Source: an uncultured Latescibacterota bacterium (lineage in GTDB: Bacteria; Latescibacterota; UBA2968). From it: a stretch of 64,000 nt of DNA. This document shows positions 5,357 to 43,250 of this stretch, piece after piece. The DNA lies in the NCBI GenBank assembly GCA_951812755.1, contig OX638329.1:4534522-4598521 (forward strand), read 5' to 3'. Position 1 is the first letter of the stretch. Each line of letters opens with the position of its first letter. The position numbers and the translations under genes were made by a program. Below the pieces are notes generated by a model that was not told where the DNA came from, searched no databases, and saw nothing but the letters and a program-made list of their open reading frames with translations.

Positions 5357-5443
5357 AGTTCAACAAATCAAAATTTGCCTCCAGAATCTCGGCGTCCTAA
5401 ATGAGATATGCCTATCGGAAAATTGCCAGAAAGAATTGATGGG

Positions 5444-5478: not shown

Positions 5479-5509
5479 AGTCCATATATTTTCACACAGG
5501 AAAACCCCA

Positions 5510-17749: not shown

Positions 17750-18523
17750 ATGTCTGTTTTTGTAAACAGAGCAAAAAAGTCACAAATATCTGTACAATGG
17801 AAATACAAAGGAAGGCCGGGAGAATGGGCTTTGTTTAATAGCATTGAAAAAGAAAATCTGAGTAAGAGGATCATCGGTGCAATCAAGAACCATATTTTGC
17901 AGAATGGATTGATGCCCGGAGACAGGTTGGCCACAGAGCGGGAGATGGCAGAAGCGTTTGGCGTGAGTCGTGCCTCCGTTCGAGAAGCGGTCAAGATTTT
18001 AGAGGCAATAGGCGTTCTGGAAGCTCGTCCCAAGCATGGGATCAGTGTCAGAGAGTTCGACCCTCAGGCTTTGTTTAAGTATCTGAGCTTTATTCCATCC
18101 ATAAATAAAAAGACGATTATAGAGATGTACGAATTGCGGCGGGCGGTGGATATTGGAATTGTGGAGATGGTAATAGAGCGCGTAACTGAAGATCAGCTAG
18201 AAGCGATGGGGCAACACCTGGAAGCGATGCGGGAGGCGTTGGAACGTCCTGTCGAGTTTTACACGCACGACTGGGCGTTTCACTTTGCGACCTACGAAGC
18301 AACAGGAAATCTGGCGACTCAGGCTCTTGGACGGGTGCTGAGTGAATTTTTCGTTACGGCTCACCGCGAGTGGTGGGACTGGGAGAGAATTGACCTGGAA
18401 CACTTCCAGAACCACGAGCGGATCTTCCTCGCCCTGAAGGCGCGTAATCCGGATGGGATGCGGCAGGCAGTGTGGGATCACTTCGATACCGGCTTGAGGC
18501 AATGGGTAAAGCGCACGCAGTGA
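17750..18523 (+). CDS. FadR-subfamily GntR transcriptional regulator
   Basis: From the ATG at 17750 the protein is 257 residues. A winged helix-turn-helix occupies about residues 40-100 (PGDRLATEREMAEAFGVSRASV), followed by an all-helical FCD effector domain with the D...H...H pattern of metal and carboxylate binding (HDWAFH, then HERI). A TTG at 17831 with GGGAG six bases upstream is an equally good start and would give the 230 residues usual for the family. FadR-type regulators sense organic or sugar acids and usually repress neighbouring catabolic genes. The palindrome at its own promoter supports autoregulation. Confidence 0.9.
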   Translation: MSVFVNRAKKSQISVQWKYKGRPGEWALFNSIEKENLSKRIIGAIKNHILQNGLMPGDRLATEREMAEAFGVSRASVREAVKILEAIGVLEARPKHGISVREFDPQALFKYLSFIPSINKKTIIEMYELRRAVDIGIVEMVIERVTEDQLEAMGQHLEAMREALERPVEFYTHDWAFHFATYEATGNLATQALGRVLSEFFVTAHREWWDWERIDLEHFQNHERIFLALKARNPDGMRQAVWDHFDTGLRQWVKRTQ

Positions 18524-18884: not shown

Positions 18885-20003
18885 ATGGCTACCTTGAAGG
18901 CAGGGATCGTGGGGCTTGGATTCGGGGAGTCACATCTGAGGACATTCCACGACTACATCGACGAAGTGGATGTCGCTGCGGTGTGCGATATCGACGAGGA
19001 GAAGGCGAACCAGTTGGCCAGGGAATACGGGGTGCCCAGGGTCTATACGGAATACGGGGACCTGCTGGCCGACCAGGACGTGGACTTCATCTGCACGGGC
19101 ACACCGGGGTTTCGCCACGGAGACGAGTGTCTGGCGGCCCTGGAGGCGGGAAAGCACATCCTGACAACCATTCCGATGGTAGAGAATGCCGACAAGCTGC
19201 ACCAGTGCATGGAGATCGTCAAGGCAGTAGAGAGAACGGGGCTGAAGCTGGCCATGGAACAGAACAGCCGGTGGGATCCACGCACGATCACTTTGAGGCG
19301 GCTGGTGAAGAAGGGCACAATCGGCGAGGTATGCTACGCCGAGTCTGAATATACACACAGTCTGGTGTACCTGTTTGTAAGAGATGGAAAGAAGACCTGG
19401 CGGGACGGGTTCGGTACGACGACGCAGGAGAGCATCTCTTCCGGCGGCGGCATTCACGCGATCGACGACATCCGCTGGATCATCGGGCAGGATTTCACCG
19501 AGGTGGTCGGGTTGGGAAACCGCATTTACTCGCCATATCGGACAGTCAACGACTGGGAGACGGCAATTTTCAGGACGACCGGTGGGGTGACGGTGAAGGT
19601 CGCCTGTTGCAAGGCGATGGCCTGGCCTGGCTGCAACCTCTACAAGTCGCTATACGGCACCAGGGCGGCCGTTGAGGGAGATCGGTATAATGGCGTGCTC
19701 GGTATTGCACATGCACAGGAGGAGGGCGGGCTTCCCGGAGAGATTGAGCCCCTGGAGTTGGTGGGGCTCGAACTGGATGCCGAGGTTGCCAAAAGAACCG
19801 GTCACGGCGGCGGTACGTACCACAACTGCCGCGACTTCGTGGACGCGATTTTAGACGATAGGCTGCCATTTATCAACGTCTATGAGGCGGCAAAGAGCTG
19901 CGCTGCAGCGATCTGTTCGCTAATCTCGATCAACGAGGGGGGCCGGAAAGTCTATATCCCCCAGTTTTACAATCGGCTGGGTCCGGAAAGGGAGATTATC
20001 TGA
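18885..20003 (+). CDS. Gfo/Idh/MocA-family oxidoreductase (paralogue 1)
   Basis: The 372-residue protein has an N-terminal Rossmann fold (GIVGLGFGESHLR) for NAD(P) and the C-terminal alpha/beta substrate domain. The family's EKP catalytic motif is replaced by T95-I96-P97, so the usual lysine is missing, while the later motif GGGIHAID keeps its histidine (H191). Two paralogues at 27529 and 33293 share the same layout, so they arose by local duplication. Family members oxidise or reduce sugars, inositols and related rings. CGGAGGGAATCG precedes the ATG. Substrate unknown; a binding or altered-catalysis role is possible. Confidence 0.85.
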   Translation: MATLKAGIVGLGFGESHLRTFHDYIDEVDVAAVCDIDEEKANQLAREYGVPRVYTEYGDLLADQDVDFICTGTPGFRHGDECLAALEAGKHILTTIPMVENADKLHQCMEIVKAVERTGLKLAMEQNSRWDPRTITLRRLVKKGTIGEVCYAESEYTHSLVYLFVRDGKKTWRDGFGTTTQESISSGGGIHAIDDIRWIIGQDFTEVVGLGNRIYSPYRTVNDWETAIFRTTGGVTVKVACCKAMAWPGCNLYKSLYGTRAAVEGDRYNGVLGIAHAQEEGGLPGEIEPLELVGLELDAEVAKRTGHGGGTYHNCRDFVDAILDDRLPFINVYEAAKSCAAAICSLISINEGGRKVYIPQFYNRLGPEREII

Positions 20004-20052
20004 GACGAGTGGGTTGGCCGAAAAATGACTGCGTATCTTCAAGGAGGTTTTT

Positions 20053-20748
20053 ATGAGAAGGATCATGGGTTTATGGATTCTTTTGTGGGTATTGTCGCCC
20101 ACGGCTTTTGTTGTGGCTCAGGAAGAGGGCCACAGAGGAGGATTCGGCGTATTCGCCGAGCTCTATTCGCCGCTGTTTAACTTCAGAGATATGTACACCG
20201 AGGGATTCAAGCTTGGGGCTGCTGCGCACTTTGTAACCAGTCCGGCACGGATCGTGGAAGTGGAGTATTACTACTCGAAGTTTGCGGGCGGCAGCCTCGA
20301 GGGACGGACGTTTCGTTTCAAGGATGGAAGGGACTACACAAGTCCACAGGCCAAGTCCGATATGACCTTTAACAGCCTGGCGGTCAACTGGCTTTTCGCC
20401 CTGAAGGATAAGAAGTTCGAAGGCGAAGGAAGCGTTCCCTATCTTACCGTTGGGGCCGGGTTCCACAACTACCATTCTAAGGTGAGCGGGCTCATCTTTC
20501 CCGAACAAGGAGGCGCCACGCTGGATCAGACCCTGCTCCTGGAGGCGATCGACGATACGCGGACAGCGCTGGGTGTAAGCGGAGGGGGCGGGATGCAGAT
20601 CTTCTTGGGTCCGAAGGCTGCCCTGGACCTGCGTGTGAGTTATAATGTGATCATTGGAGAGCTCAGGCCCTTCCTGAACTGGGGTGTGAAAAAGACCCAT
20701 CCGTTTCACTTGTTCGACATCGGGGCTGGAGTGAAGTTTTATATGTGA
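20053..20748 (+). CDS. Outer-membrane beta-barrel-like protein
   Basis: This 231-residue protein has a signal peptide ending near VVAQEEG (about residues 1-24). The mature part is made of alternating beta strands with aromatic ends (ELYSPLF, VEVEYYYS, YLTVGAGFH, LRVSYNVI) and finishes HLFDIGAGVKFYM, as in small OmpA/OprF-like barrels. GGAGG lies 8 bp upstream of the ATG. It lies just ahead of the TonB receptor and could be a porin or structural partner in the same operon. Family not recognised. Confidence 0.65.
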   Translation: MRRIMGLWILLWVLSPTAFVVAQEEGHRGGFGVFAELYSPLFNFRDMYTEGFKLGAAAHFVTSPARIVEVEYYYSKFAGGSLEGRTFRFKDGRDYTSPQAKSDMTFNSLAVNWLFALKDKKFEGEGSVPYLTVGAGFHNYHSKVSGLIFPEQGGATLDQTLLLEAIDDTRTALGVSGGGGMQIFLGPKAALDLRVSYNVIIGELRPFLNWGVKKTHPFHLFDIGAGVKFYM

Positions 20749-20778
20749 TCCGCAACCTGTCAATAAAAGGAGAAGAAT

Positions 20779-23700
20779 ATGAAGAGTGATCGTGTTTTCT
20801 GGATTGTAGGGCTGCTCGCCTTTCTGCTGCTGTTTTCGGCGACCTCCGAACAGGCGATTGCCGGGACCACAGGGAAGATCAAGGGTCAGATCGTGGACAG
20901 CAACGGTCAGGCGTTGCCCGGAGCAAATGTGATCATCGAGGGCACCTCACAGGGTACCACCACAGGGCCAGATGGGGACTACTTGATCTTGCTGGTGAAT
21001 CCGGGGATCTACACGCTGACGACGTCCATGATCGGCTACGACCAGGTTTCCAAGACGGATGTCCAGGCCATCGCTGATTTTACGACGACTGTGGATTTTA
21101 CCATGAATGAGACCGCCCTGGAGATGGCCGCAATCGTGGTCGTTGCTGAGCGACCCCCTGTGGAGCCGGACAGGACAACCACCAAATACATCCTGGATAA
21201 CTCCAACATCGAGGAGGTCGCTTCCATTGTCAAGGACACCGAACAGGTGCTTGAACTCCTGGCCGGGGTCGGTCTGGACGGAGACACTTCGATTCGTGGT
21301 GGAGACACGTCGTCATCTGGCTCCGGGAGCAGTGACGTGGTTTATTACGTCGATGGGGTGCCCATGTCTGCAGTCAATGTGGAGCGGCGGTCGCACGCCA
21401 GCCGAAATTTTCAGGGTGTCAACGCCAGTGCTGTCCAGGAACTCGCCGTGGTTACAGGCGGGATGGAGGCCGAGTACGGCAACGCTCAAGCGGGTGTTGT
21501 CAATATTGTGACAAAGGAGGGGAGCAAGGACTTCCACGGCAGCCTGGATTACCTGTTGAATCCGGCCGGAAAGAAGCACTGGGGCAGCAACGTCTATGAC
21601 AGCCCCTATTATGAAGATAAGATGAAGTGGAACGATTCGAACTGGACGGGCGAGACCGACCCGGAGACCGGACGGAGGGTACACGAGCGGACCGACTACA
21701 CCGGCGTGATCGGCCACCGTCTGGAGGGGATTCTGTCCGGACCAGTGGTCGAAAATGCCTCCTTTTTTACCTCGGCCAGATATCGGGGATTGGCGGCGGT
21801 GTTTCCGGAGGGCAAACAGCGTGGCTTCTACCTCTATCCAGACCGTAAATCGGGTTGGGTTGCCTCTCCTGGCAACATCGAGGCCTCCTACAAACTGACC
21901 GGGAATGCGCGTTCAAAGTTCAAGGTGGGCGTGGGGGGCATCTACGGCCGTTCCGGAAGCTACTGGGGAGGCTCAGGTGCCAGAAGGCAGTTGGGCCGCG
22001 ACATCTTTCTTCCGGAGGGAAGTGGCTCCGGGCAGGTCAAGTATAAAAACGACCTGACCTATGTGTCACTGACCCACATCCTGACGCCCAAGACATTTTA
22101 TGAGGCGAAGCTTTCCTTTTTCCGGGATAACCAGGACACCACCAACGTACCGGTAGATCAATACGGAGAAGGCGTTACCGAGGACATTCGTCGGGACGCG
22201 GATGGCTACTTCACAGCAGCTCCCTCGACGAGAACCGAGTATCAGCTTACGAAGCGGGAACGGATCAACTTTAAACTCGATTTCTCCAGCCAGATCACAA
22301 AGGGGCACTTCGTCAAGAGCGGATTCGAGGTCGCGTTCGACAAGGTTCTGACCGTATGGGAACGCTGGCAAAGTATGACGAGTTTTTCCCTGCGCGTGGC
22401 CGGGAAGCCATATACCAGAGATAAGCCGTGGGAGCCCATCCAGTCGTCCTGGTACATCCAGGATAAGATGGAGTTTCACGGGCTGGTCCTGAATGTGGGA
22501 ACCCGCTACGACCGGCTGGATTGGGGCACCCAGGTGCCCCAGGGCGAACACGGACTCTGGTCGATGGCGCCGATGACCAAATCGTGGACGCGCCAACAAC
22601 TCATCCCCCTGGTGGATGCCAAGGCCTTGCAGGCCTGGAGTCCCCGGGTTGGGGTCTCACACCCGATCACCGACAGGGCCACGATCCGCTATTCCTTCGG
22701 GGTGTTCCGCCAGTTGCCTTCCACATGGTACATCGCTCAGTATGGGTGGGTCAGTCGGGCCCGGGCAGCGGATTTCAACAACAACGGTCAGATCGATCCG
22801 ACAGAGGTCGGGAACCAGTCGGACTCGCGGGACTGGTCCGGATTCTGGGACCGCATCAAGTATGAAACGACCACCAGCTTTGAGGTCGGGACCGACTGGA
22901 ACTTTGTCGGGGACTACATCAGTTCTCTGACGGTCTTCTACAAGAGCGGGACAGATCAGTTTTTCTACGGCAACAGCTACTGGTGGGATCCCCAGTTGCA
23001 GGCCCCCCAGCGCGGTGGGGCCGACTGGAGGAACAACTCCTATGAGGACGTCCGGGGCATCGAGCTGTCGCTGAGGAAGAATCTCAGCCACGGGTTCGCA
23101 TTCATGGTTTCGTACAATAAGCAGTGGGTGTCGGCCGCACGCCAGTCCGGGTGGTGGCGGACCTACTTTGTGCCCGACTCGAACTGGGTCGCCACCGGAA
23201 CCAACTACTATGTGACGCACTCCCGGGACACCAACGGCGACGGACAGGTGAACAGCAGCGATTCCGGATCGGAAGTGCCGGTGCCGCTGACCACCGATGA
23301 GATCATGGAATTCGGCCACCGGGCCAACGAACGGCTCCGGGCCATCCAGAATGGCGCGGCGGCGGACTACGATCCGCTAAAGGAATCCGAGATCAAAGAA
23401 ATGGAGGATTGGCCTGGCATGTGGTCCTACAAACAGTTTAACGTGAATCCCCGGGGGCGGGGCACAGCGCAGGGGACCTTCGGCACCGAACGGCCGGGTT
23501 TCGGGTCGGCGGTGTTTATGTATCACTCGCCGACGGACTATGGACCGGTGTGGAGCGACATCAGCGTCACGTTGGTCTATCGGATGCAGGAGGGGAGGGC
23601 CAGGCGGTTCGCACTACCTGGCGAGCCACCGAAGTGGTGGTTCGGACCTGTGCATACCCGGGCCGACCTGGCCTTTGTGAAGCGGTTCCAGCTCCGCAAC

Positions 23701-23910
23701 CAGGTGCGTCCCACACTCTATTTCAACGTCAGGAACCTGTTTAACCAGCGCGATCTACAGCCCAGACCGGATGTGGACTGGTGGAAAAACGGTCTGGATC
23801 AACCCAGGCCCGACAGCGGTAAGTACAACCAGTTCGGCGATACCGGAGAACTGAGCCGGTATGCCGGGTTCCCAAGGGAGATCGAGCTGGGGGTGATGGT
23901 GTCCTTCTGA
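20779..23910 (+). CDS. TonB-dependent outer-membrane receptor with carboxypeptidase-like N-terminal domain
   Basis: This 1,043-residue protein has a signal peptide (1-28), a carboxypeptidase-regulatory-like domain (about 31-115; GKIKGQIVDSNGQALPGANV), a plug domain (about 140-245; VYYVDGVPMSAVN and GGMEAEYGNAQAGVVNI) and a 22-strand-type barrel ending EIELGVMVSF with the terminal Phe of outer-membrane proteins. Two calcium-loop-like inserts are in extracellular regions: DFNNNGQIDPTE (665-676) and DTNGDGQVNSSD (817-828). The layout is SusC/oligosaccharide-receptor-like, but no SusD-like gene follows. It probably imports a ligand with TonB energy. Confidence 0.9.
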   Translation: MKSDRVFWIVGLLAFLLLFSATSEQAIAGTTGKIKGQIVDSNGQALPGANVIIEGTSQGTTTGPDGDYLILLVNPGIYTLTTSMIGYDQVSKTDVQAIADFTTTVDFTMNETALEMAAIVVVAERPPVEPDRTTTKYILDNSNIEEVASIVKDTEQVLELLAGVGLDGDTSIRGGDTSSSGSGSSDVVYYVDGVPMSAVNVERRSHASRNFQGVNASAVQELAVVTGGMEAEYGNAQAGVVNIVTKEGSKDFHGSLDYLLNPAGKKHWGSNVYDSPYYEDKMKWNDSNWTGETDPETGRRVHERTDYTGVIGHRLEGILSGPVVENASFFTSARYRGLAAVFPEGKQRGFYLYPDRKSGWVASPGNIEASYKLTGNARSKFKVGVGGIYGRSGSYWGGSGARRQLGRDIFLPEGSGSGQVKYKNDLTYVSLTHILTPKTFYEAKLSFFRDNQDTTNVPVDQYGEGVTEDIRRDADGYFTAAPSTRTEYQLTKRERINFKLDFSSQITKGHFVKSGFEVAFDKVLTVWERWQSMTSFSLRVAGKPYTRDKPWEPIQSSWYIQDKMEFHGLVLNVGTRYDRLDWGTQVPQGEHGLWSMAPMTKSWTRQQLIPLVDAKALQAWSPRVGVSHPITDRATIRYSFGVFRQLPSTWYIAQYGWVSRARAADFNNNGQIDPTEVGNQSDSRDWSGFWDRIKYETTTSFEVGTDWNFVGDYISSLTVFYKSGTDQFFYGNSYWWDPQLQAPQRGGADWRNNSYEDVRGIELSLRKNLSHGFAFMVSYNKQWVSAARQSGWWRTYFVPDSNWVATGTNYYVTHSRDTNGDGQVNSSDSGSEVPVPLTTDEIMEFGHRANERLRAIQNGAAADYDPLKESEIKEMEDWPGMWSYKQFNVNPRGRGTAQGTFGTERPGFGSAVFMYHSPTDYGPVWSDISVTLVYRMQEGRARRFALPGEPPKWWFGPVHTRADLAFVKRFQLRNQVRPTLYFNVRNLFNQRDLQPRPDVDWWKNGLDQPRPDSGKYNQFGDTGELSRYAGFPREIELGVMVSF

Positions 23911-23938
23911 CAGGTCAACTCTATTTTTATATCTCAGG

Positions 23939-23981
23939 GCTTGGGATTGAATCGGACACAGGCTGTGGCCCAATCCCAAGC
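23939..23981. other. Intercistronic hairpin between receptor and exported-protein genes
   Basis: Perfect 11-bp arms GCTTGGGATTG (23939-23949) and CAATCCCAAGC (23971-23981) flank a 21-base loop. No T run follows, so it is more likely an mRNA-stability or attenuation element than a terminator. Confidence 0.45.
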
Positions 23982-24011
23982 GCTCCTTCATTATCACAAG
24001 GAGGTTTCAAG

Positions 24012-26228
24012 ATGCGAATAGTGAGAATAGGCTTCTGGCCTGTGGTGCTATCGCTGTTGTTTCTGCCGTGTAGCCTTTGGGCCCAGGCTGCGCCGATGCG
24101 GAACCTGACCCGGGGGCTGCTCTGGTCGGGCTATCGCAGCAACGGCATCCAGGGTAAGACCGAGGGCATGACCAGGAGCTGGGCGAGGCTGTGGGACGCG
24201 GGCCTGATGTACCCCGGCGCTCCCATTTTGGAGGGAGACTTTGAAGACCATTGGGCGGTTAAGGAGAGCATCGACTTTGCGGACCGTTCGACCCACACCA
24301 GCCAGGGAGAGGGAATCTATGTGCTGACAAAGGACGAGAGCGGCTTCTACAATGTGTCGATGTCCAACCCCCGGATCGTCACAGAGGATATCATGCCGAT
24401 GACCTACGATGCCTCCGCCGGTCCAGAGAAAGACCTGGGGGTGCGGACGGTCTCCCCGGCAACTGGAGCGGTGACGGCCAACTACTGGCCGGGGGCACCG
24501 CCAGTGGTCAACGATGTGACTGAAATCCACAACTTCGATTACAACCGGTACATTCCCAACGACACCCAACCCGAGGAAATCCTGATTACGCAGTGGGGCA
24601 CCGAAACGGGAATCGTCGTGACTCGAAAGGCCAAGGCGTGGGGCTACCCGGACTATGACGACTTCATCATTCAAGAGGTCATTCTGGAGAATACCGGGAC
24701 GAAGCAGTTGAACGATACCTACCTTTCATTTTTCAATCTGCCCAGAGTCTCTCGGGCGGGACACATGTGGACGGGCTGGACCAGCGGCTGGGAGGGTGTG
24801 GACACCCGGGTGCAGGACGACTGGTTCAAATACAGCGAAGCGCCCAATTTCGACGGCCACGCGGATCTGAGAGGAAAAAAGATCCAGTACGTCTATGACG
24901 GCGACTATCCCTTTGACCAGACCGATGACACGGGAGAGCCTGCCCGGCTGGCTGAGGCCCCGGGCAATGTCCGAAACTCCGGCCTCATCAGAGAAGGGCA
25001 ACTCCGGGCATTTCAGTATATCGGGCTGGCCCTGTTAGACGCCGATCCGACCGACGGGTTCGCCCAGGACGACGAGGTCTATGTGGCACCAAAGAATCCC
25101 GACCAGCCGGCCTTCCCCTTCTGGTGGCAGATCCGCAGCCTAGACGACATCGATACGCCGGAGCATCCTATGTCCGACGAGCAGATCTACCTGGATATGA
25201 CCGGGCAGGGGACGCGCCCCATCTCGCCGAAGCACCCCCAGGACAACCCTACAGAGCTTATGACCATGGGCTTCGCCCAGACCTATGGGCCCTACGACCT
25301 GGGGCCCGGCGATAAGGCCAAGGTCGTGGTGGCCTGGGTGGCCGGCACCGGAGCTGAATTTGCAAGCTCGGGGGGGACGGTGGACATTTTTGGATGGAGC
25401 AGACAGCCAGGTGCCCAGGCTCAGTTGCCCGACGGCGAACGGGCACTGGCCCTGCACCTGGACCGGGCCCGGTTTGCCTACGCCAACAACTACGATATTC
25501 CGGACGCGCCGCCCGACATCAGATTCACGGTAGAGAGCGACGAGGACGGGAACAATCTGCTGTCCTGGTCTGCCGACGCAGAGGACGCTGAAGACCCCGA
25601 CTATGCGGGGACTTCTGAGGCGAAGGATGTATCCGGCTACCGGATTTACCGGTCTGAACACACGTCTATGGGCCCCTGGGAGCTTCTGGTGGACCTTTCG
25701 ACTGGAACGCATAGCTACAAGGATGCCACCTCGCTCGCGGGGTTCAGCTACTGGTACTCCGTCCGGAGCTACGACTCTGGGCACGCCGACTGGAACGGCA
25801 CAGGGATGGCGATCCCTTCCCTGGAGAGCGGACACGGCGCGCCCGAAACGAGGACGCACCTGCGAAGCATACCGTTTGTGGTAGCCTCCGATAAGAAAGA
25901 CCGATTCGAGGACCCGGTGATTGTGGTGCCCAACCCGTTCAGACTCGACGACATCCACCGCTACCCGGGCGGCAGCGAAGAGATCCGGTTTGTGAATGTG
26001 CCTCGAAGGTGCAAGATCTCGATCTTTACAGTCTCCGGGGATCTGGTCGCGGTGGTGGACAACCCAGTGCGAACAAGGTCTCCGGTTCGGGGGGAGACGA
26101 GTTGGAATCAGGTGGTATTGAATTTCGCGTCGAAGGTCTCGACGGGAAAATACTTCTTCGTGGTGGAGTCTCTGATGCCGGGGAGCGAGGGTGAGAAGAA
26201 GACCGGAACCTTTATGATTGTCAAATAA
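24012..26228 (+). CDS. Exported protein with fibronectin-like domain and FlgD/T9SS-like C-terminal domain
   Basis: This 738-residue protein has a signal peptide ending near LWAQAAP (about 26). Residues about 30-480 are a beta-rich domain of unknown function; about 490-610 resemble a fibronectin type III domain (LSWSADAED... then GYRIYRSE). The C-terminal 100 residues (VVPNPF..., KISIFTVSGDLV, STGKYFFVVES, TFMIVK) resemble the FlgD Ig-like or type IX secretion sorting domain found in FCB bacteria. With the PorV/PorQ-type gene next to it, it may be a secreted or surface cargo. The upstream AAGGAGG supports the start. Confidence 0.7.
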   Translation: MRIVRIGFWPVVLSLLFLPCSLWAQAAPMRNLTRGLLWSGYRSNGIQGKTEGMTRSWARLWDAGLMYPGAPILEGDFEDHWAVKESIDFADRSTHTSQGEGIYVLTKDESGFYNVSMSNPRIVTEDIMPMTYDASAGPEKDLGVRTVSPATGAVTANYWPGAPPVVNDVTEIHNFDYNRYIPNDTQPEEILITQWGTETGIVVTRKAKAWGYPDYDDFIIQEVILENTGTKQLNDTYLSFFNLPRVSRAGHMWTGWTSGWEGVDTRVQDDWFKYSEAPNFDGHADLRGKKIQYVYDGDYPFDQTDDTGEPARLAEAPGNVRNSGLIREGQLRAFQYIGLALLDADPTDGFAQDDEVYVAPKNPDQPAFPFWWQIRSLDDIDTPEHPMSDEQIYLDMTGQGTRPISPKHPQDNPTELMTMGFAQTYGPYDLGPGDKAKVVVAWVAGTGAEFASSGGTVDIFGWSRQPGAQAQLPDGERALALHLDRARFAYANNYDIPDAPPDIRFTVESDEDGNNLLSWSADAEDAEDPDYAGTSEAKDVSGYRIYRSEHTSMGPWELLVDLSTGTHSYKDATSLAGFSYWYSVRSYDSGHADWNGTGMAIPSLESGHGAPETRTHLRSIPFVVASDKKDRFEDPVIVVPNPFRLDDIHRYPGGSEEIRFVNVPRRCKISIFTVSGDLVAVVDNPVRTRSPVRGETSWNQVVLNFASKVSTGKYFFVVESLMPGSEGEKKTGTFMIVK

Positions 26229-26256
26229 CCGTGCGACCATGAAAGGAGGCATGAGA

Positions 26257-27195
26257 ATGAGACGAATTCTGTGGATAGCCACTTTGGCCGCACTGATGGG
26301 GTCACTTCTGGCCGTGGATGCAGAGGCCATCTTCAAGAAACTGGGTACGACCGGATTCAACTTTGTGAAGATCGGCCAATCGGCCCGTCCTGTGGCAATG
26401 GGATCTGCGTATATGGCCATTTCCAACGATATAAATAGCATCTTCTGGAATCCGGCCGGTCTGACCCACATCGAGAGGGCTGCATACACCTTTTCTTACA
26501 ATCGCTGGTTTGCCGATTCAAAACTCTACTCGGGCGCTCTGGCCTATCGGTTCGGTGCTTCGGTCTTCGGGGTCAGCATGGTGTCGTTCCAGACAAAGCC
26601 GTTTGAAGAGACGACCATTTTCGAACCCAAAGGCACCGGCAAGATGGTGGAGGGAAACGACTTCGCGATCGGCGTTGCCTATGCCTATCAGTTCACCGAT
26701 CGGCTCTCTTTCGGTGCAAAATTCAGGTACCTTCAAGAGTCCCTGTTCGAAGATTCGAACACTGCTTTTGACGCCAGCGTCGGTACGCTTTTCTACACTG
26801 GCTTCCGGAACTCCCGGTTGGCGATGACCCTGAAGAATTTTGGGCAGGACAACACTGTTATCGCAGAGAGCGCTTTTATGCCGGTGGTTTACACAATCGC
26901 CGGGGCTATGGAGGTGGTCGGGAAGGTGGGAGATCCCACTTACCTGACGCTTTCAGTAGAGAACGTGTTTGCGATTGATTACGAAGGACGCGTCCACCTG
27001 GGTGCTGAGCTGTGGTTGGCCAATACACTGGCGCTGAGAGGGGGGTACAAGTGGAATTACGACGCCGAGGATTTCAGCGTCGGCGCCGGACTCAAGCGGA
27101 CTTTTGGCGCCGCGTCGCTAAGTGTGGACATCGCTTACACCCATAGTAATTTCTTCAACGCACCTTTGAGGTTCACGGTGAACGGGACGTTCTGA
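26257..27195 (+). CDS. PorV/PorQ-type outer-membrane protein
   Basis: The 312-residue protein has a signal peptide (MRRILWIATLAAL...) and a barrel typical of the PorV/PorQ/FadL-like group (GQSARPVAMGSAYMA, then NPAGLTHI). GGAGG at 26245-26249 is 7 bp before ATG 26257; upstream in-frame ATGs are poorly spaced. PorV proteins shuttle type IX secretion cargo in Bacteroidota; here it directly follows a gene with a T9SS-like C-terminal domain, so a cargo-acceptor role is plausible (inference). No other secretion genes are in the window. Confidence 0.75.
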   Translation: MRRILWIATLAALMGSLLAVDAEAIFKKLGTTGFNFVKIGQSARPVAMGSAYMAISNDINSIFWNPAGLTHIERAAYTFSYNRWFADSKLYSGALAYRFGASVFGVSMVSFQTKPFEETTIFEPKGTGKMVEGNDFAIGVAYAYQFTDRLSFGAKFRYLQESLFEDSNTAFDASVGTLFYTGFRNSRLAMTLKNFGQDNTVIAESAFMPVVYTIAGAMEVVGKVGDPTYLTLSVENVFAIDYEGRVHLGAELWLANTLALRGGYKWNYDAEDFSVGAGLKRTFGAASLSVDIAYTHSNFFNAPLRFTVNGTF

Positions 27196-27216
27196 GGTGT
27201 CTGCAACAGTATGCCG

Positions 27217-27260
27217 AACGCCGGGGGCTTGGACTACCCCGCGCTCCCGGTGTTGATTTT
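27217..27260 (+). terminator. Probable terminator after the PorV/PorQ-type gene
   Basis: Arms AACGCCGGG (27217-27225) and CCCGGTGTT (27246-27254), with one G-T pair, are followed by GATTTT. It closes the outer-membrane gene group. Confidence 0.5.
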
Positions 27261-27528
27261 GTGGACTGTTCTCGGGTTTCACTCTATCTTCTGTTCTCAT
27301 TTTTTACCTGGTGGTCCTTGACCGTATTCTTGAATTAAACGGATATCCAAGGGACACCAGTTTTTTTTGAGGAATTCATTTGTCTGTTTTGATTGAACCA
27401 CAGGAACGCCGCACATCAGAGGTGCCCTACCACAGCGATCTGGCGCCCGGGAGGCGGAGGGCACCGGGATGATACTGGAACTGGAAAAGGCGTAGCTTGG
27501 AAACCATTTAAAGGTGGGGGTGCTGGAA
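27261..27528. other. Leader region of the second Gfo/Idh gene
   Basis: It contains a poor promoter candidate (TTGACC at 27318), a T8 run (27361-27368) and an 8-bp hairpin (27421-27428 with 27458-27465). No gene is seen. Confidence 0.4.
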
Positions 27529-28725
27529 ATGAAGACTTACAAGGTCGGTGTGGTCGGGCTCGGTCACGGGGGAAGCCACGTTCGCCTAACCCACGAATAC
27601 CTTGAGCAGACCGAGTGCACTGTGATCTGTGATGTGAACGAGGAACGGCTGCAGAACACGGCCGGGGAATTGGATATAGGCAAGACAACCACGCATTACG
27701 CGGACTTGCTTTCGGACCCGGACCTGGACATTCTGTGTATCTGTTCGCCCTGTCACATCCACGGGCAGATGGTGCTGGCAGCGCTGGATGCCGGCAAGCA
27801 TGTGATGGTTGAGACGCCGATGGAAAACGAGTCCCTGGAACGGCTCTGGAAAATTATCACGATGGCCGAACGGCGACATCTGAAGGTCCAGATGGACTGT
27901 CCGGACCGATGGATCCCAGAGTCGGTGAAGATGAAGCAGTTGATTGACGATGGCCAGGTGGGAGAGATCTATTACGTAATCTGCGAATATTTGCAGGATA
28001 TTCGGCAGCAGGGCGGAGGCGGGCTCATGAAAAAAGAGGGTTTCAGGATGGGCTACGGAGTGAAGGCACAGGAATCTGTGTCTGCCGGAGCTGGCATCTA
28101 TGCTGTGGATACGGCCCGGTGGTTTCTGGGGGAGGACTTCACGGAGGTTTTCGCCTACGGCAATCGCAAGAATCTGCCCAGCCGAAACGTGGACGACCAC
28201 GATGTGGCTCTATTTCGAACGGCCTCCGGGGCGATTGCACGAGTCCAGTGTTCAAAGGCAGCGAGGCGTCCCTACAAGGAAATTACAAAATCGGTGTGGG
28301 GTACTAAGGGCACGATCGAATCTACGGGGTATCTGCCTGCGCCCCCGGACAGTACGGGGCTTTACGGATGTCTGGTGGAGGACGGCGCCGGCCCCAAGCC
28401 TTATACCGGGCCTTACGAGATGCGTCCGATTGAGGTGCCGCCGGTTCCAATACCGGAGTGGATCACCGAGGAGATGGTTCGTAAGGTGGGGCATGGTGGT
28501 GTGGAGTTCTTCAGTTGGATGGACTTGATCCACTCGATTGAGAACGATTGCATGTCGGAAATCAATGTCTATGAAGCGGCGCGCACATGTGCCGGAGCAG
28601 TTGCGGTCAAAGAGTCGAAGGTGGCGCATCGACCGATCTCCATCCCACAGATTGCGGATCGTCACGATGAGATGAAACCGCTTTATCCATTGCCCTACGG
28701 GGAAGCGTCGAGTGCGGAGCTTTGA
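27529..28725 (+). CDS. Gfo/Idh/MocA-family oxidoreductase (paralogue 2) with altered catalytic motifs
   Basis: This 398-residue paralogue of the 18885 and 33293 genes has the Rossmann motif GVVGLGHGGSHVR. The EKP motif reads E95-T96-P97, so the lysine is lost, and the later histidine position is Y191 (GAGIYAVD). Both catalytic markers of the family are therefore changed. GTG at 27514 is an alternative start; ATG 27529 after a G-rich stretch is preferred. It heads a run with an SDR and an M20-like hydrolase and may act on the same compound. Confidence 0.85.
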   Translation: MKTYKVGVVGLGHGGSHVRLTHEYLEQTECTVICDVNEERLQNTAGELDIGKTTTHYADLLSDPDLDILCICSPCHIHGQMVLAALDAGKHVMVETPMENESLERLWKIITMAERRHLKVQMDCPDRWIPESVKMKQLIDDGQVGEIYYVICEYLQDIRQQGGGGLMKKEGFRMGYGVKAQESVSAGAGIYAVDTARWFLGEDFTEVFAYGNRKNLPSRNVDDHDVALFRTASGAIARVQCSKAARRPYKEITKSVWGTKGTIESTGYLPAPPDSTGLYGCLVEDGAGPKPYTGPYEMRPIEVPPVPIPEWITEEMVRKVGHGGVEFFSWMDLIHSIENDCMSEINVYEAARTCAGAVAVKESKVAHRPISIPQIADRHDEMKPLYPLPYGEASSAEL

Positions 28726-28774
28726 GGTACTGGTTTCGTCCATTTTTCAGAAATTGTCCTGGAGGCCGGAAATT

Positions 28775-29608
28775 ATGGAGAACGATACAAAACTATCCCC
28801 TCTTCAAGGCCTGGAAGATCGCGTTGCGGTCGTGACGGGCGGGAGCCGGGGCATCGGCCGGGCGATCGCCCGCGAGTTGGCACTTCAGGGGGCGGCGGTC
28901 GCCGTCAACTATACCGCCAATGCCTCGGCGGCCGCGAGCGTGGTCGGTGAGATTGAACGGGATGATGGACAGGCTATGGCGATCCAAGCCGATGTGTCGG
29001 ATCGCGCAGCGGTGGAGGTCATGATCCAGGCAGCGGTTCAACGTTTTGGCGGGGTCGATATTCTGGTCAACAACGCCGGTATCGATGTCGCCAGTTCTGT
29101 TCTCGATACTACCGATGCCGATTGGGAACGGATTTTTGCGGTGAATGCTCGGGGGTGCTTTCTCTGTACGCAAATCGCGGCTCAGGTTATGATCAATGCC
29201 GGGGGCGGTGGACGGATCATCAACATCAGTTCGCTCAACGCCCGCCTGGGCTGGATTGCGAGAGCCGCCTACAGCGCCTCCAAAGGCGCGATGGAGGCGT
29301 TCACCCGGTGCTGTGCCCGCGATCTGGGACCGCATAGAATCACGGTCAACGCCGTGGCACCCGGCGCGATTCGCACCGAGATCTGGGGCGATACGCTTAC
29401 ATCCGAAGCTGAAAAGGCACAGGCCGAGCGCGTTGCCCTCGGGCACATCGGAGAGCCGGAGGACATCGCAGGGATCGTTGTATTTCTGGCATCCTCAGCC
29501 GCGCGCTTTATCACCGGCGAGGTTATCCTGGTGGATGGCGGCCGGGGGACATGCGATTACTTGCCGACAGAGCATGCGTTAGAGGACAAGATGTATCCAC
29601 AGATTTGA
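28775..29608 (+). CDS. Short-chain dehydrogenase/reductase (3-oxoacyl-reductase/glucose dehydrogenase type)
   Basis: The 277-residue protein has the classical SDR cofactor motif TGGSRGIG (near residue 20), the NNAG motif (VNNAGID), the catalytic Ser in ISSLNA and YSASKG (Tyr-x3-Lys), all intact. It would use NAD(P)H to interconvert an alcohol and a ketone. GGAGG lies upstream of the ATG at 28775; an earlier in-frame ATG overlaps the previous gene. It is in one operon with the Gfo/Idh and M20-like genes (short gaps), suggesting successive steps on one substrate. Confidence 0.9.
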   Translation: MENDTKLSPLQGLEDRVAVVTGGSRGIGRAIARELALQGAAVAVNYTANASAAASVVGEIERDDGQAMAIQADVSDRAAVEVMIQAAVQRFGGVDILVNNAGIDVASSVLDTTDADWERIFAVNARGCFLCTQIAAQVMINAGGGGRIINISSLNARLGWIARAAYSASKGAMEAFTRCCARDLGPHRITVNAVAPGAIRTEIWGDTLTSEAEKAQAERVALGHIGEPEDIAGIVVFLASSAARFITGEVILVDGGRGTCDYLPTEHALEDKMYPQI

Positions 29609-29625
29609 TCAGGAGGGCGTTAAAA

Positions 29626-30999
29626 ATGGCAGAGGATACACTTAAACAGATTTTCGAATATGTTGATCAACATTTCGACGATCATCTGGCAGCTACGCAA
29701 CGCTATCTTCGCCAACCCAGCATCTCAACGGAGAATTTGGGAATACAGGAGTGTGCCGAAATGACCGCAGAGATGCTGCGAGACCTGGGTGCAGACGCGA
29801 GGCTGGTCCCTCTGCAAGGCGGTCATCCCGTCGTGTACGGCCACTTGATGTCCAGGAACAGCGATCGCACCCTTCTGGTCTATGGCATGTATGACGTCCA
29901 ACCGGTAGATCCACTGGAGGCCTGGGATTCGCCGCCCTTTGAGGCCAGGATTATGGATGGCCGTATCATTGCCCGGGGTGCCATAAACACCAAGGGACCG
30001 CTGATGGCTTTTATTCACGCCGTCCATTCCATTCAGGCCGTTACAGGTGATGTGCCCGTCAACCTCATTTTTCTCATAGACGGTGAGGAAGAATTGGGCA
30101 GTCGGCACCTGCCTCAGTTTATTGAACAGTACACAGATGAGTTGAAGACCGCCGATGCAATGTACTACCATCTCCCATTGGAAACCGTTAAAGGCCATCC
30201 GCAGGTAAGTCTGGGTTTCAAAGGCATTGCTTACTTTGAGCTGGAAGTGAAAACACTGCCGACTGATGCGCATTCCATGGTCGGGCCTGTGGTCAACAGC
30301 TCGGTGTGGCGGCTGATCTGGGCACTTAATTCTATGCGCGGAGCCGACGACCGAATCGCGATTGATGGCTTTTATGAGAATGTGCAGCCTCCCACCGAGG
30401 AGGATGAGCGCATGCTCACCGATCTGCTCGATATCTGGGGGCCCCGTGCCTTCAAGGAGATGTACGGTATTACGGAATTCCGTGAAGGGCTTGATGGCCT
30501 GGACCTTGTCAGAGAAGCGATTTTTGCGCCTGGCCTGAATATCGACGGCTTTCTGTCAGGCTACACTGGGCCTGGACCCAAGGCGATTGTGCCGGCTTCG
30601 GCGATGTGCAAGATAGACATCCGGCTGGTGCCGGATATGACTGTCCAGGAGATTCTGGACAAGGTACGCGCCCATCTGGACCGGCACGGATATGGTGATA
30701 TCGAGCTGAGATTTGTGACCGGGTACGATCCAGCCAGAACATCGCCGAAAGAGCATATCGCGCAAGCCGCCGTTAGAGCCCTCAAAAGGTTAGACGCCGA
30801 GCCTGGCGTTGTGCCTATATTACCTGGAACGGCTCCGCAAGTGTTGTTCAGTGAGCCCCCGTTGAACCTGCCCTTTGTGATGTCGGGACTCGGTCACGGC
30901 TGGTTGCTGCACGCCCCTAACGAGTATTTCGAAGTGGAGGGCTTGCTGGCATGCGAAAAGTCGGCGGTTGCACTTCTGTATGAATTTGCGGATGTCTGA
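29626..30999 (+). CDS. M20-family hydrolase-like protein with substituted metal ligands
   Basis: This 457-residue protein has the M20 dipeptidase layout (DVQPVDPLEAW, DGEEELGS, HAPNEY) with a lid domain at about 190-320. The first metal histidine is replaced by M88 (GMYDVQP instead of GHYDVQP), and the bridging aspartate motif reads A-I-N-T-K-G, giving N121. The EEE cluster (E154-E156) and H429 are kept. The enzyme may bind one metal or act in another way. It starts after AGGAGGGCG and its stop overlaps a short ORF by TGATG. M20 relatives hydrolyse peptide or amide bonds. Activity cannot be told from sequence. Confidence 0.8.
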   Translation: MAEDTLKQIFEYVDQHFDDHLAATQRYLRQPSISTENLGIQECAEMTAEMLRDLGADARLVPLQGGHPVVYGHLMSRNSDRTLLVYGMYDVQPVDPLEAWDSPPFEARIMDGRIIARGAINTKGPLMAFIHAVHSIQAVTGDVPVNLIFLIDGEEELGSRHLPQFIEQYTDELKTADAMYYHLPLETVKGHPQVSLGFKGIAYFELEVKTLPTDAHSMVGPVVNSSVWRLIWALNSMRGADDRIAIDGFYENVQPPTEEDERMLTDLLDIWGPRAFKEMYGITEFREGLDGLDLVREAIFAPGLNIDGFLSGYTGPGPKAIVPASAMCKIDIRLVPDMTVQEILDKVRAHLDRHGYGDIELRFVTGYDPARTSPKEHIAQAAVRALKRLDAEPGVVPILPGTAPQVLFSEPPLNLPFVMSGLGHGWLLHAPNEYFEVEGLLACEKSAVALLYEFADV

Positions 31000-31175
31000 T
31001 GGTTGTGGCGGAATTGTCGAAGGCTATTCCGATTGCCGAGGATATCCAGAAAAAGGAAGGGCTGTTGCTCACAAAGATGGAAGAAGGGGTGAGCTTGCTC
31101 GATATGTTGAATTTTGAGGAACACTCTGCGAAGGTGGGTGCTGGAAAAGAGAGCGAGTTGAAGTTTATCGTTTGA
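30999..31175 (+). pseudogene. 58-codon remnant resembling the C-terminus of an RraA-like/HMG-aldolase protein
   Basis: ATG overlaps the previous stop (TGATG) and 58 codons follow. The middle (AEDIQKKEGLLLTKMEEG then VSLLDML) resembles the C-terminal helices of RraA-like/4-hydroxy-4-methyl-2-oxoglutarate aldolase proteins, which usually have about 150 more residues. The rest of the gene is absent, so this is probably a decayed fragment still coupled to the M20-like gene. It could instead be a real small protein. Confidence 0.45.
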
Positions 31176-31223
31176 GTTATTACCGCCCACGATAAAAAAA
31201 ATGGACATTAGGGCAGATAGGTT

Positions 31224-33239
31224 ATGAATAGCCGAGAACCAGTTTTCGTTTCCTCCAGGGCGACGAATGAATCGACTGCCGTAGATGAGGCGCACCTGTC
31301 TGCACCGGTGCAGAAGGAGGGAATTACAACGAGATCGGTGATTCTGGGCGTGCTCTTCGCGGCCTTCGCCAGCCTGTTTCTGACCTACGACGAGTACGTG
31401 ATCCGCTCCTCGTATCTCAACTTGAGTCATTTCCCTCTGATTGCCTTTCTGTGCTTCCTGGCCCTGGTTGTTTTGAACGTCGTTCTGGGTCGTCTGGGTT
31501 TTGTGCGCCCGCTTTCGTCCTTCGAACTGCTGATCATCCTGGCGATGGTGATGGCCGGGAGCGTGTTGCCGACATGGCAACTGACGGGCTTTTGGCTGGC
31601 GATCATTTCCTCTCCTTACTACTTTGCCACGCCAGAGAACCGGTGGGAACCATATTTTCACAACTACATCTCCGACTGGCTGACCCCATCCGACCAGACC
31701 GGCGCGATGACGTGGTTTTTCGAGGGTTTGCCGGCAGGAGAGCGTATTCCCTGGGAGGTGTGGGTAGTCCCCCTATTCTGGTGGGTCTGTTTTATCGCGG
31801 CGGTGACACTGGTTTCGGCGTGCATCGTGGTGGCATTGAGAAGGCAGTGGACTCATCACGAGAAGCTGGGCTACCCTCTGGTGAGTGTCGGAATTGAGAT
31901 GGCGACGAAATCCGGAGCAGTCGGCTTCAGGCCGGAGTTCATGCAGGGAAAACTGTTCTGGGCCGGGGTGGCGATTCCGTTTGGGATCGTCTGCTGGAAC
32001 ATCCTGACCTATCTTGCCCCGGGCCTCCCGGCCATTCCCCTGGGTGGAGGAAACGTGGTTCTTTACCAGGGCGCGCCGGGTATAAACCTGAACATCCACT
32101 TTTTTGCGATGGCGTTCGGTTTTTTTGCGAACTTAGAGGTGCTGTTCAGCATCTGGTTCTTCTTTCTCATCTTTATTCTCGAGGCCTCCATCTTCAACCG
32201 CATCGGCTACAGTGCTGGGGAAGGAGCGTACTGGTCATCCTACAGCGCGGCCACCGGCTGGCAATGCTGGGGAGCGTTCTGGTGTATGGTGTTCTGGGTG
32301 ATATGGACAGCGCGGCACCACCTGAAGAATATAGTGCGCGGTGCCTTCGGGGATGCCAGTCTCGCCGAGGACGGCGACGAGATGATGTCCTATCGGACCG
32401 TCGTGTTTGGATTTATCCTGGGTATAGTATTCATTCTCTTCTGGCTGCACAGCGCAGGGATGAGCTACACGATGGCCCTGGTGTTGACGGTTTCTACTCT
32501 CGTCATATACATCGGGGTGTCGAGGATCGTAGTCGAGACCGGCCTGGCTTATGTGCGGGCGCCGATGACGGCGCAGTATTCCACGCTGTATGTGCTGGGC
32601 ACCGAGGCGACCTCGGGGGCCAGCCTGACCGCCTTGACCTTCACATACTCCTTAGTGGCCCGGGGGACGGGGCTGTTCATGCCGGTATTGACTCAGGTGG
32701 GAAAGGTGGCGGATGTGGCCGCACGTTCCAGGAAAGGAATTCTGGTCTGCACCGGTCTGGCGCTGTTTGTTTCTCTGCTCTGCTCAGTGTGGGGAACCCT
32801 TTACCTGGGATATGCCCACGGAGCCTACAACTTTAACTCCTGGAAGATCAATTCCGCTGCGCCGAAGGTCCTCAACGACGTGGTCGTGTATATGCAATCG
32901 CCTTTTCCGACCGACTGGGTGAAGCTGCAGTTCTTCTGGATCGGCGCCGGGGTTATGGCTGTGATGACGTTCTTGCGGTATCGGTTTTCCGGCTGGCCGA
33001 TCCATCCGATTGGATTTGCGATTTCATCCACCTATTTCAGCTACCGAATGACCTTTTCCATCTTTCTGGCCTGGGCGTTTAAATGGACCTTTATAAAGGT
33101 CGGGGACGCGGCGCTCTACAGGCGATCCAGGCCGTTTTTTATCGGCATCCTGGTCGGCTGGGCACTGGGAGTCTCCCTGACAATTCTTGTGGATGCGATC
33201 TGGTTCCCCGGTAGCGGCCACCATATCCACGCAGACTAA
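31224..33239 (+). CDS. Polytopic membrane permease, DUF6785/OPT-like
   Basis: The 671-residue protein has a roughly 40-residue cytoplasmic N-terminus, then many hydrophobic helices (about 12-14), for example ILGVLFAAFASLFL near 45. It looks like the DUF6785/DUF6784 family, related to oligopeptide-type transporters and frequent beside Gfo/Idh genes in planctomycete and latescibacterial genomes. A uniporter or symporter role at the inner membrane is inferred. It lies between the M20-like and third Gfo/Idh genes, so it may carry their substrate. Confidence 0.7.
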   Translation: MNSREPVFVSSRATNESTAVDEAHLSAPVQKEGITTRSVILGVLFAAFASLFLTYDEYVIRSSYLNLSHFPLIAFLCFLALVVLNVVLGRLGFVRPLSSFELLIILAMVMAGSVLPTWQLTGFWLAIISSPYYFATPENRWEPYFHNYISDWLTPSDQTGAMTWFFEGLPAGERIPWEVWVVPLFWWVCFIAAVTLVSACIVVALRRQWTHHEKLGYPLVSVGIEMATKSGAVGFRPEFMQGKLFWAGVAIPFGIVCWNILTYLAPGLPAIPLGGGNVVLYQGAPGINLNIHFFAMAFGFFANLEVLFSIWFFFLIFILEASIFNRIGYSAGEGAYWSSYSAATGWQCWGAFWCMVFWVIWTARHHLKNIVRGAFGDASLAEDGDEMMSYRTVVFGFILGIVFILFWLHSAGMSYTMALVLTVSTLVIYIGVSRIVVETGLAYVRAPMTAQYSTLYVLGTEATSGASLTALTFTYSLVARGTGLFMPVLTQVGKVADVAARSRKGILVCTGLALFVSLLCSVWGTLYLGYAHGAYNFNSWKINSAAPKVLNDVVVYMQSPFPTDWVKLQFFWIGAGVMAVMTFLRYRFSGWPIHPIGFAISSTYFSYRMTFSIFLAWAFKWTFIKVGDAALYRRSRPFFIGILVGWALGVSLTILVDAIWFPGSGHHIHAD

Positions 33240-33292
33240 AGCCATATGGCACACGCTTGAGCAATTGAGATGATCAGAAGGAGAAACAGGCG

Positions 33293-34531
33293 ATGGCAAA
33301 GACATTGAAGGTTGCCGTGGTCGGGATGGGCCATGGGAGGGCACACGTTCGGGTGTTCAACGAGTACATCGACCAGACGGAGGTGGTGATGGTCTGCGAT
33401 GTCGTTGAGGAGCGAGCCAGGGCTGCGGCAGAGGAGCACGGTATCGGCAAGTGGACCACCCGCTACGCCGATGTGCTCGCCGAAAAGGACGTGGACCTGG
33501 TGGTCCTCTGCACGCCCTGTCACCTGCACGGACAGCACACCCTTGCGGCACTGGACCATTGGAAGCACGTCCTGGTTGAGGTGCCAATGGAGAACCAGTC
33601 TCTGGAGACGCTCTGGAAAATTGTGTATATGTCTGAAAGGCGCAATCTGAAGGTCCAGATGGACAATCAGCTCCGGTGGATGGCACCGACGGTGCATATG
33701 AAGCGGTTGATCGAACAGGGGAATCTTGGAGATATCTACTATGTGGAGACGGAATATGTCCACGACATTGAGGGAATTACCATCCGGCAAGATGGTTCTC
33801 CAACCTTCCGATGGGGGCTGGGAGAACTGGCCCAAGGATCGATCAACGCCGGCGGCGGTCTGTATGCCGTGGACAATGCGTACTGGTTGATGGGAGAGCA
33901 ATTCGTCGAGGTGTTCGGGTACGGAAACAAGAAGAATATGCCCTATCGACAGGTGTACGATCACGAAGTGGCACTGTTCAAAACGGCGAGCGGTGCGATT
34001 GCCCGATGCGTCTGTTCAAAGGGGCCGAAGCGACCCACGATAGAGTATGCCGCTGTGTACGGGACGAAGGGCACGCTGGAGACCTCCGGGCGTCTGCCCC
34101 ATCCTCCCGATGGTCCGGGTGTCTATGGCTGCTTTGCCGACGAAGATCCGAATTATAGCAGGGGTGTCTATGGGTGGATGTACACGGAGTCCGCCAAACA
34201 GGAGGACGGGGCTGCAAAGGAGCAGCCGGAACACGGGATGGTGAAAATCGAGGTGCCGCCGCTGATTGTGGATGAGGAAATCTCCAAGAGGGTAGGCCAC
34301 GGCGGCACGGAGTACCTGGCCGACCTGGATTTGGTGAATGCCATCCTGGAGGACTACCAACCGCCGTGCAACGTCTATGAGAGCGCCCGGTCCTGCGCCG
34401 GGGCAATCTGTGCGGTGCAGTCGATCTACGAGGGCAGGCCGGTCCAGGTGCCGGATATTGTAGATAGAAGCGACGCCGTCAAGCAGTTTGGACCGCTACC
34501 TACTGCACACCAGAACTCGGACGAGCTATAA
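33293..34531 (+). CDS. Gfo/Idh/MocA-family oxidoreductase (paralogue 3) with altered catalytic motifs
   Basis: This 412-residue protein has VVGMGHGRAHVRVF at its N-terminus. The EKP motif reads E96-V97-P98 and the histidine position is Y191 (GGGLYAVD), the same double change as in paralogue 2. It keeps the overall length and C-terminal domain. GGAGAAACAGGCG precedes the start. Its stop overlaps the start of a Tat-signal fragment, so a further partner was probably once encoded here. Substrate unknown. Confidence 0.85.
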   Translation: MAKTLKVAVVGMGHGRAHVRVFNEYIDQTEVVMVCDVVEERARAAAEEHGIGKWTTRYADVLAEKDVDLVVLCTPCHLHGQHTLAALDHWKHVLVEVPMENQSLETLWKIVYMSERRNLKVQMDNQLRWMAPTVHMKRLIEQGNLGDIYYVETEYVHDIEGITIRQDGSPTFRWGLGELAQGSINAGGGLYAVDNAYWLMGEQFVEVFGYGNKKNMPYRQVYDHEVALFKTASGAIARCVCSKGPKRPTIEYAAVYGTKGTLETSGRLPHPPDGPGVYGCFADEDPNYSRGVYGWMYTESAKQEDGAAKEQPEHGMVKIEVPPLIVDEEISKRVGHGGTEYLADLDLVNAILEDYQPPCNVYESARSCAGAICAVQSIYEGRPVQVPDIVDRSDAVKQFGPLPTAHQNSDEL

Positions 34532-34624
34532 TGACACGAAGGGAGTTTCTTGCAAGGGGCGGCCGAGCAACCACCGGTCTGGCAGGTCTGTCTCTGGCTG
34601 TACGGCTGACAATGGAGGATGGAA
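34531..34624 (+). pseudogene. Orphan Tat signal peptide, 5' remnant of an exported-protein gene
   Basis: ATG overlaps the previous stop by one base. The ORF begins MTRREFLARGGRATTG, a twin-arginine signal followed by a hydrophobic stretch. The frame then runs on inside the next gene without recognisable domain content. The mature part has been lost, probably when the TPR/FG-GAP block was inserted or when sequence was deleted. Confidence 0.55.
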
Positions 34625-38247: not shown

Positions 38248-38272
38248 AGGTGGATAGAAAGGATCGTTCAGG

Positions 38273-41157: not shown

Positions 41158-41199
41158 CCGTTGAGCGATCGATAGCCGGATTTGAACGAGGTGGTGGGT

Positions 41200-43125: not shown

Positions 43126-43171
43126 AGAAGTCGCCCTTGCACCGCGTCCGACGCCTCCGCGAAAACAGTGA

Positions 43172-43200
43172 TTGCCTACCATGTGAAGATTGTGCATAAT
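43172..43200 (+). promoter_or_regulatory. Candidate promoter of the zinc alcohol dehydrogenase gene
   Basis: TTGCCT (43172-43177) and CATAAT (43195-43200) are 17 bp apart, 51 bp before the ATG at 43251. No other strong signal is seen in this short gap. Confidence 0.4.
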
Positions 43201-43250
43201 AACAAAGTACACGACCCCTAAATACATATCCTTTGAACTGCACAAATACC

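What the first reader, a model, noticed from the sequence alone, without database searches (positions are those of the whole stretch)
18885..34531. Three local Gfo/Idh paralogues lacking the EKP lysine, two also lacking the histidine
EKP is TIP, ETP and EVP in the 18885, 27529 and 33293 proteins, and the G-x-H motif is H191, Y191 and Y191. A fourth Gfo/Idh protein at 44649 keeps both. Loss of the usual catalytic residues in duplicates from one locus suggests either a new chemistry or a binding role.
Basis: partly seen in the sequence, partly recalled or inferred. Interest (0 to 1): 0.6.

Follow-up and report, generated by a model that had tools for sequence, protein, structure and literature searches.

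The report
Lysine-less sugar-enzyme trio near GH109
Three neighbouring sugar-enzyme genes lack the lysine usually called essential for their family, but the lack is inherited from an old branch that includes proven NAD-dependent sugar-cleaving enzymes (GH109), so they are more likely working enzymes with a different active site than dead copies.

Summary
The neighbour at 44649 keeps K, D and H.

The interpretation needs correcting. The lysine was not lost in local duplicates. With motif columns removed, the trio falls in a Lys-less clade (99/95) with the solved NAD+-dependent glycosidases of GH109 (6t2b, EVP; 2ixa, EVS). It also spans Chloroflexota relatives, and 16 of 88 Gfo/Idh proteins in this genome lack the lysine. 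All three proteins keep the GH109 Tyr226 and GGHGG-loop His404 equivalents. Only the His259 equivalent changed to Tyr, once, before 27529 and 33293 split. Tyr is standard at that column in another branch of the superfamily.

dN/dS is 0.045-0.077, like the canonical paralogue. In two sister species the cluster continues with a complete sugar ABC importer, of which the window keeps only a deletion scar. Best reading: active, cytoplasmic, NAD-dependent sugar or glycoside enzymes of a GH109-related branch. They do not qualify as GH109 proper because the PF21252 cut-off is not met. Substrate and activity are untested.

The parts
18885..20003 (+). Gfo/Idh-like paralogue 1 (372 aa): TIP at 95-97, Gly for Asp, His191 kept, Tyr156, GHGG with His307
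19167..19175 (+). TIP codons in place of EKP
19455..19457 (+). His191 (equivalent of GH109 His259 and of the inositol dehydrogenase His)
19803..19805 (+). His307 of the GHGG loop (equivalent of GH109 His404)
27529..28725 (+). Gfo/Idh-like paralogue 2 (398 aa): ETP at 95-97, Tyr191, Tyr154, GHGG with His322
27811..27819 (+). ETP codons in place of EKP
28099..28101 (+). Tyr191 in place of the His
33293..34531 (+). Gfo/Idh-like paralogue 3 (412 aa): EVP at 96-98, Tyr191, Tyr155, GHGG with His336
33578..33586 (+). EVP codons in place of EKP
33863..33865 (+). Tyr191 in place of the His
34532..34610 (+). remnant of the start of a solute-binding-protein gene (TRREFLARGGRATTGLAGLSLA): scar of an ABC importer intact in G003 and G007
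17762..18523 (+). GntR/FCD regulator heading the cluster
20053..27195 (+). outer-membrane set: small beta-barrel-like protein, TonB-type receptor (by sequence), 738-aa secreted-looking protein with no Pfam hit, PorV-like protein
28775..33239 (+). SDR oxidoreductase, M20 peptidase, DUF6785/DUF6784 membrane protein between paralogues 2 and 3
40003..44273 (+). enolase-superfamily sugar-acid-dehydratase-like protein, DUF3604 protein, zinc alcohol dehydrogenase
44649..45890 (-). fourth Gfo/Idh protein, canonical EKP and DMGVH; not a close relative of the trio

Best explanation
The trio are active, cytoplasmic, NAD-dependent enzymes acting on an imported sugar or glycoside. [quoted passage not shown] Shown here: the fold family, the missing Lys and Asp, kinship with GH109, retention of the GH109 Tyr226 and GGHGG-loop His404 equivalents, and strong purifying selection. 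Inferred: NAD takes hydride from the sugar (C3 in GH109), with the GHGG-loop His and the EYxH Tyr doing the proton transfers that Lys-Asp-His do in inositol dehydrogenase. The 18885 protein, which has all three GH109 residues, may do redox-assisted glycoside cleavage. In 27529 and 33293 Tyr191 replaces the third residue, and they may be oxidoreductases or altered elimination/hydration enzymes on the same pathway.
For: GH109 enzymes lack the Lys: 6t2b EVP and 2ixa EVS. With the motif columns dropped, trio + EIP/GGGPH relatives + GH109 form one Lys-less clade, 100/99 and 99/95 with more taxa. Column check at AmGH109A Tyr226, His259 and His404: Y/Y/Y, H/Y/Y, H/H/H in the trio. The residue roles come from PMC10755693, which cites Teze 2020 for the GGHGG loop. 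The profile of the trio aligns over nearly full length with 6t2b. dN/dS is 0.045-0.077 against 0.068-0.073 for the canonical 44649 gene. A MalK-type sugar importer directly follows the 33293 orthologue in two sister species. Full-length models with mean pLDDT 82 and 87.
Against: PF21252 (GH109 C-terminal domain) is not reached (12.7-16.9 bits against a cut-off of 27). GH109 is not among the top 50 structural matches, where DgpA1, levoglucosan dehydrogenase and inositol dehydrogenases rank first. Two of three lack the His259 equivalent. No activity, cofactor or substrate was tested. Trio-to-GH109 identity is low.
Confidence: 0.62

Rival explanations
1. Plain NAD(P)-dependent dehydrogenases with relocated acid-base residues, as in PmdC (EIP, catalytic histidines on the helix) or biliverdin reductase (EYP), with no glycosidase or elimination chemistry.
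For: PmdC (EIP) and Synechocystis biliverdin reductase (EYP) are solved Lys-less members; PmdC is active and depends on His177 (PMC11489326). Structure search ranks dehydrogenases first. Tyr stands at the His column in dihydrodiol dehydrogenase and KijD10. SDR and Zn-ADH lie nearby.
Against: The tree joins the trio to GH109, not to biliverdin reductase; PmdC was left out of that tree because only its N-terminal part was at hand.
Confidence: 0.22
2. Catalytically dead sugar- or NAD-sensing proteins, like yeast Gal80 (recalled from general knowledge), regulating the cluster.
For: The textbook K-D-H triad is gone in two of three.
Against: GH109 catalytic Tyr and GGHGG His kept; other Lys-less members are active enzymes; a GntR regulator already heads the cluster.
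Confidence: 0.1
3. The motif is only shifted in the alignment and the proteins are standard dehydrogenases.
For: The Gly-rich loop is one residue shorter than in canonical members, so local shifts exist.
Against: No Lys lies within a few residues of the EKP column on the relevant side in any of the nine orthologues/paralogues; alignments of different depth agree.
Confidence: 0.03

Closest known systems
GH109 (AmGH109A 6t2b; E. meningoseptica NagA 2ixa), NAD+-dependent N-acetylgalactosaminidases
   Same: Lys of EKP absent; Tyr226 and GGHGG His404 columns kept; same supported clade; near full-length profile match
   Different: PF21252 not reached; no YPTH motif; His259 is Tyr in two of three; no N-terminal extension; outside the GH109 subclade
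EIP/GGGPH relatives in the same class (L040-L042) and Chloroflexota (L205, L206)
   Same: Sister group (95/90), Lys and Asp absent, EYLH or GYLH and mostly GHG kept, 33-41% identity
   Different: His kept; different gene neighbourhood; uncharacterised
PmdC, CHMS dehydrogenase (9azo)
   Same: Gfo/Idh fold, EIP instead of EKP, experimentally active (PMC11489326)
   Different: Catalytic HHxxH motif; C-terminal similarity to DHDPR; aromatic-derived substrate
Inositol dehydrogenase / Pl-scyllo-IDH (K106-D191-H195)
   Same: Fold and NAD-domain features
   Different: Catalytic triad of PMC5969746 absent: K lost in all three, D lost in all three, H lost in two
GH188-type NAD+-dependent sulfoquinovosidase (SqgA)
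   Same: Gfo/Idh-fold glycosidase with equivalents of His259 and His404 (PMC10755693)
   Different: Retains Lys107 at O3 (PMC10755693)

Membership tests
Gfo/Idh/MocA superfamily | PF01408 NAD domain plus Gfo C-terminal domain over curated cut-offs | tested here: met
   PF01408 68.6-74.7 bits; PF22725 45-73.5 bits; PF02894 29.7-42.9 bits
Gfo/Idh/MocA superfamily | EKP lysine | tested here: not met
   TIP, ETP, EVP; not universal, also absent in PmdC, BVR and GH109
Inositol dehydrogenase type | K-D-H catalytic triad | tested here: not met
   K and D absent in all, H absent in two; IolG models far below cut-off
GH109 | PF21252 Glyco_hydro_109_C over cut-off | tested here: not met
   16.9, 13.6, 12.7 bits against 27
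GH109 | GGHGG-loop histidine (His404) | tested here: met
   TGHGG, VGHGG, VGHGG
GH109 | Tyr226 equivalent | tested here: met
   Y156, Y154, Y155
GH109 | His259 equivalent | tested here: inconclusive
   met in 18885 (His191), not met in 27529 and 33293 (Tyr191)
GH109 | falls inside the GH109 subclade | tested here: not met
   sister to it within one Lys-less clade
GH109 | NAD-dependent alpha-N-acetylgalactosaminidase activity | not testable with these tools
   needs enzyme assay
Gal80-like non-catalytic regulators | no turnover, regulatory protein partner | not testable with these tools
   needs experiment

The most novel reading that the evidence does not exclude
The 27529/33293 pair founds a new NAD-dependent sugar- or glycoside-processing enzyme type: no Lys, no Asp, Tyr in place of the GH109 His259, GHGG-loop His kept. 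It would work beside a His-type partner (18885) in one pathway, as a redox-elimination route not covered by GH4, GH109 or GH188.
Probability: 0.28. Interest if true: 0.6.

Novelty: new variant of a known kind. Interest (0 to 1): 0.4.

Why it matters
It shows that loss of the EKP lysine in this very large superfamily should not be read as loss of function: in the branch holding GH109 it is the rule. It gives a simple sequence sign (no EKP Lys, EYxH Tyr, GHGG His) for picking candidate redox-type glycoside enzymes among proteins annotated only as 'oxidoreductase'. The His-to-Tyr step within one gene cluster is a natural experiment on what the His259 position does.

Tried and rejected
Motif shift: rejected by several alignments. 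Local decay or pseudogenes: rejected by dN/dS 0.045-0.077, open frames and conservation in three species. Independent loss in each local duplicate: rejected by trees. Filing as GH109: rejected on PF21252 and tree position. Outside relatives: first genome-contig scan found nothing; the alignment scan returned mostly canonical IolG-like proteins of Bacillota, though L092 and L049 were useful; plasmid search gave only distant members; the phylum of G065 gave none at E 1e-40 and that of G066 gave only an EKP protein. Literature: the Taberman review on the superfamily is not held; one search for biliverdin reductase Tyr97 gave nothing. Structure search confirms the fold but does not single out GH109.

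Full report
OBSERVATION. Aligned, EKP of the 44649 protein corresponds to TIP (18885), ETP (27529) and EVP (33293), and its His to His191, Tyr191 and Tyr191. The third member of the K-D-H triad described for inositol dehydrogenase (PMC5969746), the Asp four residues before the His, is Gly in all three. The fourth protein keeps all three residues (VEKPM, DMGVH). AlphaFold models (mean pLDDT 82 and 87) place residue 191 at the start of helix 190-200, as expected for the catalytic helix.

HOW COMMON. The genome holds 88 Gfo/Idh-like ORFs in my set, and 16 lack the Lys. On a tree of these plus relatives the Lys-less proteins need only three changes (shuffles 18.3, none of 500 as low). 'No Lys plus Tyr' was found only in 27529, 33293 and their orthologues.

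ORIGIN. The trio is a clade (52% and about 40% identity, 98/90 to 99/97 support) conserved at 96-98% in two sister species, G003 and G007, and not found at E 1e-50 in the other eight genomes of the genus. Trees with the EKP, EYxH, His and GHGG columns taken out put the trio with an EIP/GGGPH group (same class: L040-L042; Chloroflexota: L205, L206) and, one step deeper, with a GH109-containing group that includes 6t2b and 2ixa: one Lys-less clade at 100/99 and 99/95 with more taxa. The neighbours just outside (L004, L006, L049, L209) have EKP but already Gly for Asp. The likely order of events is therefore Asp lost, then Lys lost, then, much later and once, His to Tyr in the ancestor of 27529 and 33293. 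The local duplications did not cause the Lys loss.

WHY IT IS PROBABLY STILL AN ENZYME. The solved GH109 enzymes have EVP and EVS. In AmGH109A, Tyr226, His259 and His404 are the proposed catalytic residues, His404 in a conserved GGHGG loop (PMC10755693, citing Teze 2020, which I could not read). I recovered these numbers exactly from the chain and read the columns: the trio has Tyr/Tyr/Tyr, His/Tyr/Tyr and His/His/His, the last in (T/V)GHGG. Mutation of the His259 equivalent in the Spirosoma enzyme abolishes activity (H225A, PMC6521355), so His-to-Tyr in two copies is a real change. But Tyr is the residue at this column in dimeric dihydrodiol dehydrogenase, KijD10 and 4had, and a Tyr or His base is described as general for the superfamily (PMC9795676). 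PmdC, with EIP, is an active dehydrogenase (PMC11489326). dN/dS of the trio is 0.045-0.077, the same as the canonical neighbour (0.068-0.073) and the sugar-acid-dehydratase-like gene (0.069-0.072).

CONTEXT. The cluster holds a GntR regulator, an outer-membrane set, SDR, M20, a DUF6785/DUF6784 membrane protein, an enolase-superfamily protein most like galactonate/arabinonate dehydratases, DUF3604 and a Zn alcohol dehydrogenase. In G003 and G007 the gene after the 33293 orthologue is a solute-binding protein, followed by two permeases and a MalK-type ATPase. In the window these genes are gone: a remnant of the binding-protein start (TRREFLARGGRATTGLAGLSLA) runs straight into the next gene, and no copy was found elsewhere in the genome at E 1e-20. 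This links the trio to an imported, probably sugar-like, substrate, and shows that the window's own cluster is a cut-down version. The trio's frames begin directly at the first beta strand, so no export signal is seen (sequence).

LIMITS. Kinship to GH109 is by tree and residues, not by the Pfam model, which stays below its cut-off. Structure search ranks DgpA1, levoglucosan and inositol dehydrogenases ahead. GH109 sequences were taken from alignment printouts, so the ends and 19 residues of 2ixa are missing. The SqgA sulfoquinovosidase keeps its Lys (PMC10755693), so redox-type glycosidases do not need to lack it. Substrate, cofactor and reaction are inferred. I file the trio as a new variant of a known kind: a GH109-related, Lys-less Gfo/Idh branch with a His-to-Tyr pair.

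Noticed in passing
34532-34618 (window); L187 about 3336-7640; L188/L189: Deletion scar of about 4.2 kb: a complete ABC sugar importer present in two sister species is lost here, leaving only the start of the binding-protein gene.
   Followed up: yes
whole genome (G000): 88 Gfo/Idh-like ORFs; besides the trio's clade there are other Lys-less lineages: ETP/EIP proteins related to 44649 (L131, L149, L156, L168), QAR proteins (L130, L150) and an EYP protein resembling biliverdin reductase (L133).
   Followed up: partly
18912-18938, 27556-27582, 33323-33349 (approximate): Gly-rich NAD loop is one residue shorter than in canonical members (GLGFGESH against GIGMIGSDH); similar in GH109-like L141 and L021.
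   Followed up: partly
34619-39991: Two FG-GAP/ASPIC-like repeat proteins (by eye) and a TPR protein sit between the trio and the dehydratase; function unclear.
   Followed up: no
17762-18523: The GntR regulator has clearly higher dN/dS (0.32-0.38) than all other genes of the cluster, perhaps relaxed or shifting specificity.
   Followed up: no
L186:3399-5183: In G007 a PF02129/PF08530 (S15, CocE-like) hydrolase gene lies upstream of the regulator; absent from the window.
   Followed up: no
L202: A GH109-like Lys-less protein in a Chloroflexota genome lies next to an ABC permease gene, again tying this branch to sugar import.
   Followed up: no
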